32,847 bases of DNA from Alphaproteobacteria bacterium. GTDB lineage: Bacteria > Pseudomonadota > Alphaproteobacteria > Rickettsiales > Deianiraeaceae. Shown piece by piece: positions 5,432-29,643 of the stretch; the first letter of the stretch is position 1; every line of letters starts with the position of its first letter. Location: contig JANYEN010000030.1 of NCBI GenBank assembly GCA_025363115.1, positions 1 through 32,847 of the forward strand. The letters are read 5' to 3'. The position numbers were made by a program, and so were the translations under genes. The notes beneath the pieces are model-generated. The model saw nothing but the letters and a program-made list of their open reading frames with translations. It was not told the DNA's origin and did not search any database.

Positions 5432-7597
5432 ATGTTTAGGTATTTTTTTCAAGATTTTAAAGCCAGTATAAATGTTTTTTTTATTTCTATTCCCTTGTGT
5501 TTAGGCGTAGCAGTTGCGGCAAATGCTCCAGTTCAAGCTGGTATTATCTCTGGTATTATCGGGGGTATCGTTGTTGGATTATGTAGCGGGTCTCATGTTA
5601 ATGTTAGTGGACCCTCACCAGCCATGATTGCAACTATTTACTCAGCAATGCTACATTTTAAGGATTATAGAATATTTTTGTGTGCACTATTTTTATCTGG
5701 TATTATACAAATTATAATAGGTATAATAAAACTAGGTCGATTTGGTAGATATGTTCCCTTAAATGTAATTAACGGCCTATTGTTTGCAGTAGGAGCAATT
5801 TTAATTTTTAACCAATTCCCAGTATTAATTGGATATAGCACAGTTTCAACTGGAGATTTTGACTTTTTTAAAACCAACAGCAATGATAATACTTTAAAAA
5901 TTTTATATCATGCCATATCTCATCTTGATTTAGCTTGTACAATTATTGGATTTATATCTATTTTAATAGTATTATTTTATGATAAAATAAGTAAAAAATT
6001 TAAAACGCAAAATATTGGATCTTTAATAGTAGTAATATTTGGCATTGTTTCTGTTATTGTATTAAATTATATTGGAGATAATTTTTCTACATTACCACTA
6101 ACTGATAAACAATTAGTTCAGTTACCAGTATTTACTAGCTCTATATCTGGCAGATTTTTTGATTTAATTATGCATCCTAATTTTAGTTATCTTTGTAGGC
6201 TAGATGTGTTGTATATAGCTGTCATAATAGGGCTGATAGGCTCGGTAGAGTCTATTTTATCTACAGAAGCAGGAGATAAATTGGATAAAGAAAAAAGACA
6301 TACTTCTTTAAACAGAGAATTACTTGCACAAGGGGCAGGCAATGTAGTTGCTGGATTACTTGGTGGAATTCCTATAACAGCTTTAGTTCTTAGAACATCA
6401 GTTAATATTAATGCAGGCGCTAAAACCAAATCTTCTGCTATAATTAATGGATTTTTATTATTTTTAGCAGTATTATTAATTCCTAATATTTTAAATCAAG
6501 TACCTTTAGCTGCATTAGCAGCAGTTCTCATTATGTCTGGCATAAAACTTATAATACAAGTTGATTTAAAAAAAATATATAAACGTGGACATAGCTCTTT
6601 TATACCATTTGGCATTACAGTTGCTACTATATTTTTTACTAATTTATTAGAAGGAGTTTTGTTTGGTTTAATAGCATCTGCATTTTTTGTTCTTAAAAGT
6701 CATCAAAAAAATCCTTTTAAATCTATGTATGATAAATATAGTGTTGACGAAGCTATTAGAATTAAATTGCCAAGACAAGTTTCTTTTTTAAATAAAATCA
6801 CATTTGTTGATTTAATAAAATCGATACCCGCAAATTCCACTGTTATGATTGATGCAGAAGAATGTCAATACATTGATTATGATATTTTAGATATTATTAA
6901 AGATTTTAACGATTTTTATGCGCCTAATCATAATATCAAAGTTACGTTAAATGGATTTTTAGAAAAATATGAAATTAAAAATTCTCCTTTTATAGCAACA
7001 ATTACTAAAGAACAGCAAGAAAAAATGACCCCTGACCAAGTTTTAGAATGGATGATTGCTGGAAATAAAAGATTTATTAATGGTGAGCATATTTATCATA
7101 GTATAATAAAACAAAGGCAAAGCACCGCAACACAAGGACAACATCCAATGGCAGTTATTTTAAGTTGCATTGATTCGCGTTCGGCACCTGAGTTAATTTT
7201 TGACTTAGGCATAGGCGACGCAGTTAGCATTAGAATTGCAGGCAATATTGTTAATGAAGATATTATCAGTAGTATAGAATTTTCTTGTAAAGAGCTAGGC
7301 ACTAAGCTAATTGTTGTTTTAGGGCATACTGCCTGCGGAGCAATAAATGCAGTTTGCGATGGGTATTCTAAAAATGTTGCCAGAAGCATATTAGATAAAA
7401 TAAACCCTATTGTTGCAAAGGTTAAAGATTATATACCTAAAAATATTTTAGGAGAAGAGGTTATTAAAATGAACGTTATCAATTCTACTAATTTAATTGA
7501 AAAAAGTGCAATTATTAAAGAAATGATCGATTCTAAAGAAATAAAAATTGTGTCAGCAGTATACAACATTGCTACGGGAGTTGTAGAATTTATATAA
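5432..7597 (+). CDS. SulP-family anion transporter fused to a beta-carbonic anhydrase
   Basis: This inner-membrane protein joins a SulP permease to a carbonic anhydrase, so it most likely moves bicarbonate coupled to CO2 interconversion. Residues 1 to about 420 are highly hydrophobic and match SulP (early APVQAGIISGIIGGIVVG and VNVSGPSPAMIATIY; later VGLIGSVESILSTEAGDKLD-type stretch). About residues 435-535 resemble a short STAS-like linker. Residues 545-721 are a beta-carbonic anhydrase with complete zinc ligands: C579 and D581 in SCIDSRSAPEL, and H632 and C635 in LGHTACGAINA. The total length of 721 residues fits known SulP-CA fusions. It follows holB by six bases. Sulphate transport is the main alternative, but the fused enzyme makes bicarbonate likelier. 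Confidence 0.88.
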   Translation: MFRYFFQDFKASINVFFISIPLCLGVAVAANAPVQAGIISGIIGGIVVGLCSGSHVNVSGPSPAMIATIYSAMLHFKDYRIFLCALFLSGIIQIIIGIIKLGRFGRYVPLNVINGLLFAVGAILIFNQFPVLIGYSTVSTGDFDFFKTNSNDNTLKILYHAISHLDLACTIIGFISILIVLFYDKISKKFKTQNIGSLIVVIFGIVSVIVLNYIGDNFSTLPLTDKQLVQLPVFTSSISGRFFDLIMHPNFSYLCRLDVLYIAVIIGLIGSVESILSTEAGDKLDKEKRHTSLNRELLAQGAGNVVAGLLGGIPITALVLRTSVNINAGAKTKSSAIINGFLLFLAVLLIPNILNQVPLAALAAVLIMSGIKLIIQVDLKKIYKRGHSSFIPFGITVATIFFTNLLEGVLFGLIASAFFVLKSHQKNPFKSMYDKYSVDEAIRIKLPRQVSFLNKITFVDLIKSIPANSTVMIDAEECQYIDYDILDIIKDFNDFYAPNHNIKVTLNGFLEKYEIKNSPFIATITKEQQEKMTPDQVLEWMIAGNKRFINGEHIYHSIIKQRQSTATQGQHPMAVILSCIDSRSAPELIFDLGIGDAVSIRIAGNIVNEDIISSIEFSCKELGTKLIVVLGHTACGAINAVCDGYSKNVARSILDKINPIVAKVKDYIPKNILGEEVIKMNVINSTNLIEKSAIIKEMIDSKEIKIVSAVYNIATGVVEFI

Positions 7598-18579: not shown

Positions 18580-19443
18580 ATGTCGCAAAATCAAACTATT
18601 TATGCCAAAATAGAAGTAGAAATAATGGATTTTTGGCAGAAAAATAATATTTTTAATAAATCGGTCGAAACACGAGAAAGCGAGATTGATGGCAAAAATA
18701 ATGAATATATATTTTATGATGGTCCACCGTTTGCAAATGGTTTGCCTCATTATGGTCATTTATTAACTGGTTATGTTAAAGATATTTTTGCAAGATATCA
18801 TACAATGAAAGGTCAAAAAGTAGAGCGTCGATTTGGATGGGATTGTCATGGTTTACCAGCCGAAATGGAAGCTGAAAAAGAGTTAAATATAAATGGTAGA
18901 TTGGCTATTAGTGAATATGGGATTGATAAATTTAATAACCAATGCCGTTCTTCGGTTATGAAATATACCTCGGAATGGAAAAATTATGTTTCACGGCAAG
19001 CTAGGTGGGTAGATTTTGATGGCGGATATAAAACCATGGATACTGATTATATGGAATCGGTAATTTGGTCATTTAATGAGCTTTATAAAAAGGGTTTAAT
19101 TTATGAAGATATGCGAGTGATGCCTTATTCTTGGAAATGCGAAACTCCTTTATCTAATTTTGAAACCAAGCTGGATAATAGTTATCGTCAAAAAGAAAGT
19201 AAATCAGTTTATGTTAAATTTGAATTAGAATCATTACCAGAATTTGTTTTAAATAGTTACCCTCAAACTAAAAAAGTTTTTATTATTGCCTGGACGACAA
19301 CCCCATGGACATTGCCTTCTAATCTTGCTCTTGCGGTTGGTAAAAATATAGATTACGTGGTAATAGTAAAGCAAGAAGAAGCTTATATTTGTGCAAAGGA
19401 AATGCAAGAAAAGATTTCTCAAATAATATTCGCTTCGCTATAA
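18580..19443 (+). pseudogene. ileS: isoleucyl-tRNA synthetase, N-terminal fragment
   Basis: The first 287 residues of an eukaryote-like IleS are present. They include the opening of the Rossmann fold YDGPPFANGLPHYGHLLTGY (the HIGH motif as HYGH), FGWDCHGLPAEMEAEKEL and the first part of the CP1 editing domain with the threonine-rich WTTTPWTLPSNLALAVG. The frame then ends after KEMQEKISQIIFASL, whereas the family is about 900-1100 residues long. The rest of the editing domain, the KMSKS loop and the anticodon-binding domain are missing, and nusA converges only 60 bases later. There are no internal stops or frameshifts, so the truncation looks recent. The fragment cannot charge tRNA; an intact copy should exist elsewhere. 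Confidence 0.85.
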
Positions 19444-26763: not shown

Positions 26764-26791
26764 TTGACATTTATGTTGTGCAGGATATATG
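26764..26791 (+). promoter_or_regulatory. candidate promoter of the Gln-rich HisE-like gene
   Basis: A consensus TTGACA (26764-26769) is followed after 16 bases by TATATG (26786-26791). This would give a leader of about 90 bases, much longer than any other gene here seems to have. The leader contains a GC-rich patch (AAAGGGGGCCGAGGTG, 26841-26856) that is unusual for this AT-rich DNA. Confidence 0.4.
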
Positions 26792-26889: not shown

Positions 26890-27750
26890 ATGGCGCGTAA
26901 CCAAAAGTCTGCTAAATTTCAAGCAGTACCACAACAAAACCAACAATTTCAACAACAACCTTTCCAAGTTTTGGAAGGCAGAAATCAAAATGCTCAAGAA
27001 GCATATGCTCAATATGTTGCTTCTCAAGCTGCACAATTAGGATATAATAATGCTAATCAGCAACAATTAGAGCAACCTCAACAACAGTTTGCTAACCAAC
27101 AGCAATTCCAACAACAACCTTTCAACCAACAACAAAATTATCAGGCTCGTGCAGAACATAACGAATATGAAGCACCAGAAAGACAAGAGTTGAATAAGTA
27201 CGAAAAGTACCAACAAAGTCAACAACTAGATAGTCGTCGTGCTCGTGCTCAATATGTTGGTAATGTTATTACTGCTTTATTTGAAATTATAGCAGAAAGA
27301 AAAAATGCCAATCCAGAAGATTCTTATACTGCTTATTTACATCAAGAAGGTAGTGTAGCATTGGCTAGAAAAACAATCACTGATGTTGCCAATTCGGTAT
27401 TTACTTTATTAAATAATGAAGAATCTAAATATGCTGTTGACGATGTAAGTAATGTGGTTTACGACTTGTTTGTTATACTTGAAGCTAAGGGATACGATAT
27501 TACCGATCTGTGTCACATGCTTGAGCAAAAAATTGTTGAATCTGATGCTGATGTTCAAGAATTAGTAGATGGTATGCCTAATGTTTTTGCAAATCATCAA
27601 CTTGAAAATCAAAATAATCATCAATTTGAAAATCAAAATAATCACGCTAATAATCAAAAACAAAAGCCTAAACAAAAAGCTAAAAAACCTGTAAAACTAG
27701 CTAAACAAAAAGCTAAAAAACCTGTAAAACTAGCTAAACCTAAAAACTAA
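26890..27750 (+). CDS. Gln-rich protein with a degenerate HisE-like domain and Lys-rich repeat tail
   Basis: The 286-residue protein has three parts. Residues 1-115 are dominated by Gln, Asn and Ala (QQNQQFQQQPF, QQQFQQQPFNQQQ). Residues about 120-215 read like phosphoribosyl-ATP pyrophosphohydrolase (HisE): FEIIAERKNANPEDSYTAYL, then K161 and a helix, then VVYDLFVILEAKGYDITDL. In active HisE the first helix carries KVGEEAxE and the next ExxD; here the equivalents are KTITDVAN (161-168) and DVSN (185-188), so most of the acidic metal ligands are gone. Residues 235-286 are Asn/Gln-rich repeats and then two KQKAKKPVKLA units. No histidine genes are nearby. It has its own promoter-like and terminator elements. 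A structural or nucleic-acid-binding role is inferred; activity is unlikely. Confidence 0.75.
   Translation: MARNQKSAKFQAVPQQNQQFQQQPFQVLEGRNQNAQEAYAQYVASQAAQLGYNNANQQQLEQPQQQFANQQQFQQQPFNQQQNYQARAEHNEYEAPERQELNKYEKYQQSQQLDSRRARAQYVGNVITALFEIIAERKNANPEDSYTAYLHQEGSVALARKTITDVANSVFTLLNNEESKYAVDDVSNVVYDLFVILEAKGYDITDLCHMLEQKIVESDADVQELVDGMPNVFANHQLENQNNHQFENQNNHANNQKQKPKQKAKKPVKLAKQKAKKPVKLAKPKN
27669..27734 (+). repeat. perfect 33-bp tandem duplication encoding KQKAKKPVKLA twice
   Basis: Bases 27669-27701 and 27702-27734 are identical, and 33 is a multiple of three, so the frame is kept and an 11-residue basic unit is repeated. A shorter 24-base imperfect repeat lies just upstream (LENQNNHQ / FENQNNHA). 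The identity suggests a recent expansion, and copy number could vary between strains. Confidence 0.9.
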
Positions 27751-27763
27751 TTATTTTATTTAT

Positions 27764-27806
27764 TTTAAGAAGCGGTAACAAACTGCCGCTTCTTAAATAT
27801 TTTTTT
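27764..27806 (+). terminator. strong intrinsic terminator of the HisE-like gene
   Basis: Arms TTTAAGAAGCGG (27764-27775) and CCGCTTCTTAAA (27786-27797) pair perfectly over 12 bases around a 10-base loop. A T run follows, ending at 27806. It starts 13 bases after the stop codon and isolates the gene from the TPR gene downstream. It is the clearest terminator in the window. Confidence 0.9.
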
Positions 27807-27839: not shown

Positions 27840-28523
27840 ATGTCACAAAAGCCTCAATTAGTCAATTTATTAAAACATCACTTTAAAGATATTCAAGAAG
27901 GTTATTACTTATATAAACAAGAAAAATATTTACAAGCAGAAATAATATACTTAAAATATTATAACAAATATCCTGATGATCCAGATATATTACATAATTT
28001 AGCATGTAGTTTTTTTATGCAAAAAAAATATGAATTAGCATTAAAGTATTTTAAAAAATCTACTGATAAAATATGGTCTTATCATTCAAGTTATCATTTT
28101 ATTTCCTCTGCGTTATATTATAATAAAGGTTTATTAACTGGAGACATAAATTACTTTAAAAAATCATGTTGGTTTTATCCACAAAACAATCAAGCTAAAA
28201 ATGCAATTAATGGCGACATTGCCAATAGAGAACAAATTCCTGTAATGCTAAATATTAACAATACGGCTGGAGATTTATTGATTTTTGAGAATAATAGAAT
28301 TAAATTTTCAACATCTGATATTTATTTGCAAAACTTACAACAAGAACATTTCAATTATCATTGCATGGCAGCTAGACAGTTTTTTAACAGGGCATTATGT
28401 TTTGCTATGTTAAAAAAAAACGATATAGCAAAATTTGATGCAATCAGAGCGTTTGAATTCGATGTACAAAATCCTGACAACGAAAGCTATAAAAATTTTG
28501 CCGAAACCTTGCATTTATCTTGA
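27840..28523 (+). CDS. TPR-repeat protein of unknown function
   Basis: The 227-residue protein carries tetratricopeptide-like helices. The best pair lies at about residues 18-85 (QEGYYLYKQEKYLQAEIIYL; PDDPDILHNLACSFFMQKKY). Another probable repeat lies near the C-terminus (AARQFFNRALCFAMLKKNDI). The middle (about 110-160) is not repeat-like. There is no signal peptide, so it is probably a cytoplasmic scaffold for protein contacts. It begins 34 bases after the terminator of the preceding gene with no obvious promoter or Shine-Dalgarno, and is followed by the insertion sequence. Confidence 0.72.
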   Translation: MSQKPQLVNLLKHHFKDIQEGYYLYKQEKYLQAEIIYLKYYNKYPDDPDILHNLACSFFMQKKYELALKYFKKSTDKIWSYHSSYHFISSALYYNKGLLTGDINYFKKSCWFYPQNNQAKNAINGDIANREQIPVMLNINNTAGDLLIFENNRIKFSTSDIYLQNLQQEHFNYHCMAARQFFNRALCFAMLKKNDIAKFDAIRAFEFDVQNPDNESYKNFAETLHLS

Positions 28524-28783: not shown

Positions 28784-29643
28784 AATAATAGGTTCAAAAC
28801 TCAAGAGGACTGCATTAACTACCTTGAGACTAAACGCTGGTCTGGAGTTCCAAAATGTCCTTACTGCTGTTCAACAAATACTAATAGGTTAACTTCTGAG
28901 GGCAGACACAGACACCATTGCAACGGTTGTAGAAAATCTTTTTGCGTAACCATAAGCACTATTTACCATGGAAGCCACATTTCTTTACAAAAATGGTTCT
29001 TGCTTATAGCTCTTATGATAAATGCTAAAAAGAGTTTATCAGCCTGCCAAGCTGCAAGAGACTTAGGTATGCGTAGACCTACAGTTTGGTCAATGATGCA
29101 CAGAATACGCAAGGCTTTAACTCAAGACACAGATTTATTATGTGGTATAGTTGAAGTTGATGAAACCTACACTTGCACTAAAAAAGATGATAACGATGAG
29201 GATTTACCTAAGATGCGTGAGCGTGGTTGCAACAAACAGGCAATCGTTGGAATGATTGAACGTAATGGTAAGGTTAAAGCGGTTAAGCAAGATAAATTGA
29301 ATTTTGAAAGCTTAAAGAAGCTATTGTTTGCCAGTATTAACATTGAAAAATCTGTTTTGTATACTAATAACTATAGAGGTTATATACCATTTAAGAAGCA
29401 TTTGCCATGCTATACAGTAAAATCATAGCATTAAAAAAGCAATTTGTTAGTGGTGAAGTGCATATTAACACGATTGAGTCGTTTTGGGCAATTTTGAAAA
29501 GAGGAATTAAAGGACAGCTTTATCCTATATTGGTTAAATATTTGAATAGATATTTAGATGAATTTTGCCATAGATACAATATGCGTATGATGAGCCAAGA
29601 TGGGGTGTTTAACGATGTTATGGGTAGGATGTTGGGGGCTTAG
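28784..29643 (+). pseudogene. IS1595-family transposase, inactivated
   Basis: The reading starts near FKTQEDCINYLETKRW and continues through an N-terminal zinc ribbon (KCPYCCSTN; HHCNGCRKSFC), a helix-turn-helix (AARDLGMRRPTVWSMMHRIR) and the ISXO2-type DDE domain (VEVDETYTC; HINTIESFWAILKRGIKG). Four lesions are visible. There is no ATG, GTG or TTG start in a place that fits the strong AAAGGAGG at 28774-28781. The second catalytic Asp is Asn in LYTNNYRGY (TDxYRGY is expected). A stop follows CYTVKS at about 29428. The sequence resumes in another frame at KKQFVSGEVHIN, ending at 29643. It is a fossil gene and could move only if supplied with an active transposase. Confidence 0.85.

What the first reader, a model, noticed from the sequence alone, without database searches (positions are those of the whole stretch)
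26890..27750. A HisE fold without its catalytic acids, set between a Gln-rich head and a Lys-rich tail
The central 95 residues follow the phosphoribosyl-ATP pyrophosphohydrolase pattern closely (AERKNANPEDSYTAYL and YDLFVILEAKGYDITDL), but the metal-binding EExxE and ExxD positions read TDxxN and DxxN. Histidine biosynthesis genes are absent around it. The N-terminal Gln/Asn-rich region is prion-like in composition, and the tail resembles histone-H1-like basic repeats. Together with its own promoter, long leader and strong terminator, this suggests an abundant protein whose enzyme fold has been reused, perhaps for oligomerisation of a nucleic-acid-binding or condensate-forming protein. Seen: the motifs and losses. 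Inferred: the role. I know of no described family with this architecture.
Basis: partly seen in the sequence, partly recalled or inferred. Interest (0 to 1): 0.8.

Follow-up and report, generated by a model that had tools for sequence, protein, structure and literature searches.

The report
Dead histidine enzyme with sticky tails
In a small clade of bacteria in whose draft genomes the histidine-making genes tested were not found, one enzyme of that pathway survives with its catalytic residues changed and long, simple, glutamine- and lysine-rich arms added, which suggests that an orphaned enzyme was turned into a structural protein.

Summary
The gene at 26890-27750 (+) encodes 286 aa: a Gln/Asn-rich head, a HisE (phosphoribosyl-ATP pyrophosphohydrolase) domain and a basic, tandem-repeat tail. 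HisE homology is secure (PF01503 and TIGR03188, both above cut-off). The metal acids read T,D,N/D,N where all 87 canonical HisE domains I aligned read E,E,E/E,D; the invariant His is lost too. The one other genome held of this genus keeps the architecture and the losses (S,D,N/D,N). A third relative, in another genus of the family, has Lys-rich arms and a partly eroded site (D,E,Q/E,D). hisG, hisD and hisI were not found in these three incomplete genomes but occur in 9-10 of the 18 family genomes. A GyrA tree puts the three in one clade, so a single origin is likely. Two genomes of another family carry a separate case: HisE with a basic repeat arm but intact acids, with hisD present; so arms alone do not mean a dead enzyme. 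Most likely the window protein is a non-catalytic dimeric scaffold that binds nucleic acid or another polyanion through its tails (inferred); a nucleotide sensor and a type IV effector are live rivals. New variant of a known family; function untested.

The parts
26764..26769 (+). TTGACA, candidate -35 element; possible weak -10 (TATATG) at 26786-26791
   Evidence: sequence; TTGACA in the same-genus orthologue and TTGACT in G004 upstream of the gene; not listed by the promoter scan
26890..27750 (+). whole gene, 286 aa plus stop
   Evidence: ORF list; orthologue of the same architecture in G001/L061
26890..27225 (+). head, residues 1-112: 33% Gln, 11% Asn
   Evidence: composition; 41 Q/N of 80; 42% identical to the orthologue's head
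27226..27573 (+). HisE-like domain, residues 113-228
   Evidence: Pfam, NCBIfam, PDB and profile matches; 75% identical to the orthologue, dN 0.16, dS 0.72
27298..27300 (+). Arg137, equivalent (by motif position) of MtHISN2 Arg183, a phosphate contact; kept
27322..27330 (+). Ser145-Tyr146-Thr147, equivalent (by motif position) of MtHISN2 Ser195-Trp196-Thr197; kept
27379..27393 (+). EExxE position, here T-D-V-A-N: metal ligands changed
27442..27453 (+). ExxD position, here D-V-S-N: metal ligands changed
27460..27465 (+). Tyr191 (equivalent of MtHISN2 Tyr240, which stacks on adenine) and Asp192 (invariant His lost)
27529..27531 (+). Lys214, equivalent of MtHISN2 Arg263 (adenine N1 contact); conservative change
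27574..27747 (+). tail, residues 229-286, Asn/Gln then Lys-rich
   Evidence: composition, pI 10.6; last 35 residues 14 K+R, 0 D+E
27592..27644 (+). 24-bp tandem repeat, 2.2 copies
27668..27739 (+). perfect 33-bp tandem repeat, 2.2 copies
27764..27797 (+). intrinsic terminator, 14-pair stem followed by a T-rich run

Best explanation
A HisE gene that outlived its pathway. In the common ancestor of two genera (G000/G001 and G004) histidine biosynthesis was lost, while a stand-alone HisE stayed, carried low-complexity arms that turn over by short tandem duplications, and stepwise lost its catalytic residues (partly in G004, further in the window's genus). Whether the arms came before or after the loss of the pathway is open; arms on an intact HisE in another family show that they can come first. 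The remaining helical domain most likely still dimerises, as HisE does; each dimer then carries basic C-terminal tails and, in this genus, two Gln/Asn-rich heads. I propose a non-catalytic scaffold that gathers nucleic acid (nucleoid DNA or RNA) or another polyanion through the tails, with the heads adding weak self-association. Shown: homology, residue changes, architecture, genes not found in three draft genomes, one clade in a GyrA tree, purifying selection on the domain. Inferred: dimerisation, loss of activity, polyanion binding, self-association.
For: HisE homology. Acids invariant in 58 of 58 and 29 of 29 canonical domains, changed in the three decorated ones. HisI, HisD and HisG not found in G000, G001 and G004; found in 10, 10 and 9 of 18 family genomes. 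GyrA tree: the three form one clade, support 98/94, inside the family. Domain dN/dS about 0.23 with 75% identity, head 42%, tail 25%: the domain is maintained while the arms turn over but keep their character. Basic last 35 residues in all three, pI 10.5-11.4. In MtHISN2 the PRA-PH domain is a swapped dimer and a monomer is called highly improbable (PMC8102479, passages).
Against: No test of dimerisation, binding or activity. The orthologue in G001 is acidic overall (pI 4.9) and the window protein neutral, which weakens a simple histone-like role. HU-type genes are present in all three genomes, so no missing HU is being replaced. G004 keeps three ligands of one metal site and could be active. 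G285 and G286 carry a basic repeat arm on a HisE with all acids, and have hisD, so arms are no sign of a lost enzyme role. Four family genomes without these his genes have no HisE match at all, so pathway loss does not lead to a decorated HisE by itself. The three genomes are 83-88% complete. Long branches in the HisE tree are not special to these proteins. AlphaFold models were weak (mean pLDDT 57 and 66).
Confidence: 0.46

Rival explanations
1. Nucleotide-sensing pseudoenzyme. The metal site is dismantled but the neighbouring pocket for the N1-phosphoribosyl/adenine part (Arg137, Ser145, Thr147, Tyr191, Lys214) is largely kept, so the domain still binds an adenine nucleotide without hydrolysing it, and binding switches assembly or tail exposure.
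For: Pocket residues named from the MtHISN2-AMP structure (PMC8102479, section 9). Against the consensus of 29 class domains the window is identical at 4 of 5 pocket positions and 0 of 6 metal-plus-His positions (Fisher p 0.015).
Against: Against the 58 domains mainly of the order the consensus is Val at 147 (34; Thr 11) and Phe at 191 (49; Tyr 9), so only 2 of 5 match (p 0.18). The 29 class domains were the best scorers of a profile that itself holds Thr and Tyr, a bias. Positions were chosen after seeing the alignment, and mapped by motif spacing. In that paper ITC assigned the measured AMP binding to the other (PRA-CH) domain (passages). PR-ATP is not made without HisG. The residues may be kept for folding or packing.
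Confidence: 0.17
2. A type IV secretion effector or surface protein: low-complexity, tandem-repeat protein with a basic C-terminus, delivered into a host cell.
For: VirB4-type genes in 18 of 18 family genomes; basic C-terminal ends; tandem repeats. That Rickettsiales effectors tend to have basic C-termini is recalled.
Against: VirB4 is present in every family genome, this protein in 3 of 18, so no association; a HisE domain under purifying selection has no obvious link to secretion.
Confidence: 0.13
3. Still an active pyrophosphohydrolase with a rebuilt acid site, perhaps with a new substrate, the arms being an accessory.
For: Two acids remain (D165, D185); G004 keeps Glu, Glu and Asp of metal site 2; all three proteins pass the TIGR03188 cut-off; arms coexist with a full acid set in G285 and G286.
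Against: Asn at two metal-ligand positions, loss of the invariant His, and no exception among 87 canonical domains.
Confidence: 0.12
4. A decaying remnant of hisE without function, kept open by chance.
For: Pathway genes not found; strong divergence.
Against: Intact 286 and 299 aa frames in two species with 75% domain identity and dN/dS about 0.23, TTGACA upstream in both and a strong terminator here.
Confidence: 0.05

Closest known systems
HisE / PRA-PH (Pfam PF01503, TIGR03188), stand-alone type
   Same: domain of residues 113-228 is homologous
   Different: metal ligands and invariant His changed; long low-complexity arms; hisG, hisD and hisI not found in the genome
MtHISN2 and SfHisIE (PDB 7bgm/7bgn, 6j2l)
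   Same: PRA-PH domain; most of the N1-phosphoribosyl/adenine pocket residues
   Different: no PRA-CH domain found; metal ligands of MBS2 not kept in the window protein
HisE with a basic N-terminal repeat arm in G285 and G286 (other family, same order)
   Same: HisE domain joined to a low-complexity basic arm with tandem repeats
   Different: arm at the N-terminus only, Ser/Asn/Lys-rich; all five acids kept; hisD present
MazG / all-alpha NTP pyrophosphatases
   Same: MazG-type chains appear beside HisE in one structure list
   Different: no MazG family match in Pfam; EExxE...ExxD not kept
Proteins with lysine-rich nucleoid-binding tails (AlgP, HupB tail, PhaF; seen only as search listings)
   Same: low-complexity Lys-rich C-terminal part attached to another domain (details of these proteins recalled)
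   Different: attached domain is HisE; head is Gln-rich; overall charge not basic in this genus

Membership tests
HisE (phosphoribosyl-ATP pyrophosphohydrolase) | sequence profile above curated cut-off | tested here: met
   PF01503 23.5 vs 21.3 bits; TIGR03188 43.8 vs 42.7
HisE (phosphoribosyl-ATP pyrophosphohydrolase) | EExxE and ExxD metal ligands | tested here: not met
   TDxxN and DxxN; 58 of 58 and 29 of 29 canonical domains have all five
HisE (phosphoribosyl-ATP pyrophosphohydrolase) | histidine pathway in the same genome | tested here: not met
   no HisG, HisD or HisI match in G000, which is 84.5% complete; other his genes not searched
HisE (phosphoribosyl-ATP pyrophosphohydrolase) | dimeric all-helical fold | tested here: inconclusive
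   five helices predicted; HisE/MazG chains take ranks 1-7 but at Z 5.8-6.5 only, on a model of pLDDT 66 whose alignment held HisE rows; dimer not modelled
HisE (phosphoribosyl-ATP pyrophosphohydrolase) | PR-ATP pyrophosphohydrolase activity | not testable with these tools
   needs an enzyme assay
MazG-like pyrophosphatase | MazG profile match | tested here: not met
   PRA-PH is the only Pfam family listed at E up to 1
Histone H1-like tail protein (AlgP type) | Lys-rich low-complexity tail | tested here: met
   last 35 residues 14 K+R, pI 11.1; 33-bp repeat
Histone H1-like tail protein (AlgP type) | DNA binding | not testable with these tools
   needs a binding assay
Phasin PhaF | phasin domain | tested here: not met
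   PRA-PH is the only Pfam family listed at E up to 1
Prion-like protein | Q/N-rich segment of at least 30 in 80 residues (threshold recalled) | tested here: met
   41 of 80; 37 of 80 in the orthologue
Type IV secretion effector | translocation by the secretion system | not testable with these tools
   VirB4-type genes in 18 of 18 family genomes; translocation not assayed

The most novel reading that the evidence does not exclude
A histidine-biosynthesis enzyme, orphaned by loss of its pathway, was converted in one bacterial clade into a ligand-gated assembly protein: the domain still holds an adenine nucleotide in its old phosphoribosyl pocket but can no longer cut it, and nucleotide binding controls clustering of the Q-rich heads and nucleic-acid binding by the Lys-rich tails. 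G004 would be a surviving intermediate, and the armed but intact HisE of G285/G286 an independent first step on the same road.
Probability: 0.14. Interest if true: 0.82.

Novelty: new variant of a known kind. Interest (0 to 1): 0.55.

Why it matters
It gives a tree-anchored case of what can happen to an enzyme when its pathway is lost during genome reduction: the protein is kept, its active site is dismantled, and it carries disordered-looking arms, with a less eroded form in a sister genus and an armed but intact form in another family. It also warns that profile-based annotation (TIGR03188, PF01503) would probably credit these genomes with an active histidine enzyme. If the pocket still binds nucleotide, it would be a compact model for the evolution of a sensor from an enzyme.

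Tried and rejected
Structure: two AlphaFold jobs with five-row alignments gave weak models (pLDDT 57 and 66). For the first the top rows were HlyD, talin and PI3K chains, with HISN2 at ranks 18 and 20 and MazG at 32; for the second HisE and MazG chains rank 1-7 at Z 5.8-6.5, not clearly above unrelated rows. I do not lean on either.

Viral or plasmid origin: no relative confirmed in viral contigs with the decorated profile or a canonical HisE profile, no match in 50,697 phage records; 11 plasmid-collection records match weakly, 8 at annotated hisE/hisIE/cyclohydrolase genes and 3 at places without a listed gene; best PHROG E 0.047.

Replacement of HU: rejected, HU-type genes are in all three genomes. 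An RNA element in the leader: no Rfam match there, folding z -0.58. Strong expression: codon use shows only a mild tendency (GCT 21 of 32 Ala, CGT 5 of 9 Arg; same codon at identical residues 70% in the domain against 57% in TruA), not enough to claim abundance. The TruA comparison was misaligned and was replaced. The HisE tree has too few columns and low support around the decorated branch (89/74, 89/54, 86/8), so it does not place it.

Literature: searches for HisE with nucleoid (736 papers, 15 listed; the word-start match also takes other words that begin with 'hise'), phosphoribosyl-ATP pyrophosph* with pseudoenzyme (0), two of phosphoribosyl-ATP, lysine-rich, Rickettsiales (10, all listed), and two of HisE, phosphoribosyl-ATP, moonlighting (53, 15 listed) showed no title or abstract start that describes this architecture. 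Only open-licence papers are held. Rickettsiales with Deianiraea and histidine biosynthesis gave 0. PMC10242683 (HisIE kinetics) was seen in passages and not used further.

Full report
What is there. The reading frame at 26890-27750 (+) starts with ATG and encodes 286 residues. Residues 1-112 are 33% Gln and 11% Asn; residues 113-228 match HisE; residues 229-286 turn from Asn/Gln-rich to Lys-rich. Pfam PRA-PH scores 23.5 bits against a cut-off of 21.3, NCBIfam TIGR03188 43.8 against 42.7, the best PDB sequences are HisIE and HisE at about 2e-6 to 3e-6, and profile-profile comparison with six canonical HisE domains gives 99.2% probability over 98 columns (the decorated profile there includes G004). 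The gene diverges from truA, has TTGACA upstream and ends in a strong terminator. The next gene (27840-28523, TPR-like, below the Pfam cut-offs) lies beyond the terminator.

Catalytic residues. I aligned 61 distinct HisE domains from the loci fetched by then (76 hits, 15 duplicates dropped; most from the order, three from Bacteroidetes; not all 117 matching genomes). All 58 canonical ones have E,E,E at EExxE and E,D at ExxD; the window reads T,D,N,D,N, the same-genus orthologue S,D,N,D,N and G004 D,E,Q,E,D. The invariant His after ExxD is Asp, Asp and Asn in the three; the Lys before EExxE (58 of 58) is kept in the genus and not in G004 as aligned. In 29 further domains from the class (the 29 new loci returned of 231 matching genomes, the best-scoring ones) the five acids and the His are again 29 of 29, the Lys 28 of 29.

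What is kept. In the plant HISN2-AMP structure Arg183, Ser195, Thr197, Tyr240 and Arg263 hold AMP in the PRA-PH domain, which the authors read as the place of the N1-phosphoribosyl group (PMC8102479, section 9 read); metal site 2 is Glu214, Glu234 and Asp237 (passages). By motif position and spacing (not by a direct alignment to that chain) these correspond to window Arg137, Ser145, Thr147, Tyr191, Lys214 and to D165, D185, N188. Against the 29 class domains the window matches the consensus at four of five pocket positions and none of six metal-plus-His positions (Fisher p 0.015). Against the 58 domains mainly of the order it matches two of five, because Val and Phe are commoner there at 147 and 191 (Thr 11 of 58, Tyr 9 of 58; p 0.18). 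The class domains were the best scorers of a profile that holds Thr and Tyr, so the better figure is biased. Pocket retention is thus suggestive only.

Relatives. That scan of named genomes, by two short peptide patterns, confirmed otherwise only three Bacteroidetes HisIE genes. G004, in another genus of the family, has a HisE domain with a Lys-rich head and a 156-residue Lys-rich tail. In 343 genomes of the order 117 have a HisE match; the three proteins score 177-209 bits (they built the profile) and the next 70.6. Of the 24 other matches with an open frame of at least 150 aa, 11 have HisI-like sequence before the domain (by eye, and for those of the family), 2 carry an arm (next paragraph), and in 10 of the remaining 11 the first Met lies within ten residues of the matched domain, the last (G237) being unclear; none has a C-terminal extension over 15 residues. 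In 385 genomes drawn from the class, of the listed matches at E up to 1e-10 none but the window exceeds 70 bits (the list is cut).

A second armed HisE. G285 and G286, one genus of another family of the order, have HisE proteins of 201 and 231 aa (from the first Met) with an N-terminal arm of 117 and 146 residues, Ser/Asn/Lys-rich, pI 10.1 and 10.3, with a 39-bp tandem repeat in G286. All five acids are kept and hisD is present in both genomes. In G285 the gene lies beside a small HesB/IscA-like gene and a guaB-like gene (by eye), and I saw no his gene beside it on that contig. So arms have been added to HisE at least twice by this count, and once without loss of the acids. This speaks for a sequence in which arms come first, and against reading the arms as proof of a new job.

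Pathway and origin. HisI, HisD and HisG families have no match in G000, G001 and G004 (84.5, 88 and 83% complete), but 10, 10 and 9 of the 18 family genomes have them. Four other family genomes (G002, G006, G011, G017) also lack all three and show no HisE match, so losing the pathway does not by itself lead to a decorated HisE. The GyrA tree groups G000, G001 and G004 (98/94) inside the family (16 of 18 family genomes are in it; G004 is a long branch, G006 a short fragment). In the HisE tree the HisIE domains of eight other family genomes fall with the three Bacteroidetes HisIE (91/87), the decorated ones elsewhere but without firm support; their long branches (4.21 and 2.63) are matched by canonical ones (2.75 for G005/G009, 2.32 for G285/G286). 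The simplest history is loss of the pathway with retention of an armed stand-alone HisE in one ancestor, followed by further erosion of the site in the window's genus.

Selection and growth of the arms. Between the two same-genus species the domain is 75% identical with dN 0.16 and dS 0.72; head 42%, tail 25% (dS of the head saturated, tail estimate unreliable). For scale TruA is 65% identical and GyrA 84%. The arms carry different short tandem repeats in each species: the composition is kept while the sequence turns over, as expected of disordered segments that work by composition (inference).

How it may work. The PRA-PH domain of MtHISN2 is a swapped dimer (PMC8102479, passages). A dimer would carry two heads and two basic tails. 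I think a non-catalytic scaffold on nucleic acid or another polyanion is most likely (0.46), because the basic end is an arm feature shared by all three proteins. Points against: the orthologue is acidic overall (pI 4.9) and the window protein neutral, HU is present, and nothing was measured. A nucleotide-sensing reading (0.17) rests on the partly retained pocket. A type IV effector (0.13) cannot be excluded: VirB4-type genes are in all 18 family genomes.

Literature context. Two Rickettsiales studies (PMC9352585 and PMC10847448; starts of abstracts and passages) describe repeated loss of amino-acid biosynthesis in the order; the word histidine was not found in either main text. In the searches made no listed paper describes this architecture, judged from listings.

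Verdict. Observation confirmed and strengthened; interpretation partly supported. A new variant of a known family: a HisE-derived probable pseudoenzyme with low-complexity arms, found in one clade, with a less eroded form in a sister genus and an independent armed but intact HisE elsewhere in the order. Interest 0.55, held back by the untested function and by having only three members.

Noticed in passing
L071/L139 7425-8030 (-) (G285) and L072/L140 (G286): HisE with an N-terminal, Ser/Asn/Lys-rich basic arm of 117 and 146 residues and intact catalytic acids, in genomes that have hisD: an independent case of a HisE with a low-complexity arm.
   Followed up: partly
window 18580-19443 (+): An isoleucyl-tRNA synthetase-like frame (by eye) of only 287 aa ends inside the contig next to a nusA-like gene; it looks like a truncated ileS or a split gene.
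   Followed up: no
window 29000-29643 (+): Two overlapping frames together resemble an IS1595-type transposase, apparently broken (by eye; family name recalled).
   Followed up: no
window 5432-7597 (+): A 721-aa protein that looks like a SulP-type anion transporter fused to a carbonic anhydrase domain (recognised by eye, not searched).
   Followed up: no
L009, L010, L011, L013, L019, L021, L030, L067 (other genera of the same family): Their HisIE domains group with three Bacteroidetes HisIE in the HisE tree (91/87), together with G297, G301 and G302 of another family; this may mean horizontal replacement, but few outside HisIE were sampled.
   Followed up: partly
L065 (G005) and L066 (G009): These two genomes carry a very divergent stand-alone HisE (canonical acids kept) and a HisI match inside a frame of 523 and 509 aa, unlike the other family genomes.
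   Followed up: no
L061 457-1194 and 2966-3217 (-): A second, partial copy of the truA start lies near the intact truA, in a stretch that separates truA from the decorated hisE compared with the window.
   Followed up: no
G000:C43, G001:C9: The HU-type proteins of the two window-genus genomes score 72 and 68 bits, at the low end of the best matches in the family (68 to 117), i.e. they are diverged.
   Followed up: no
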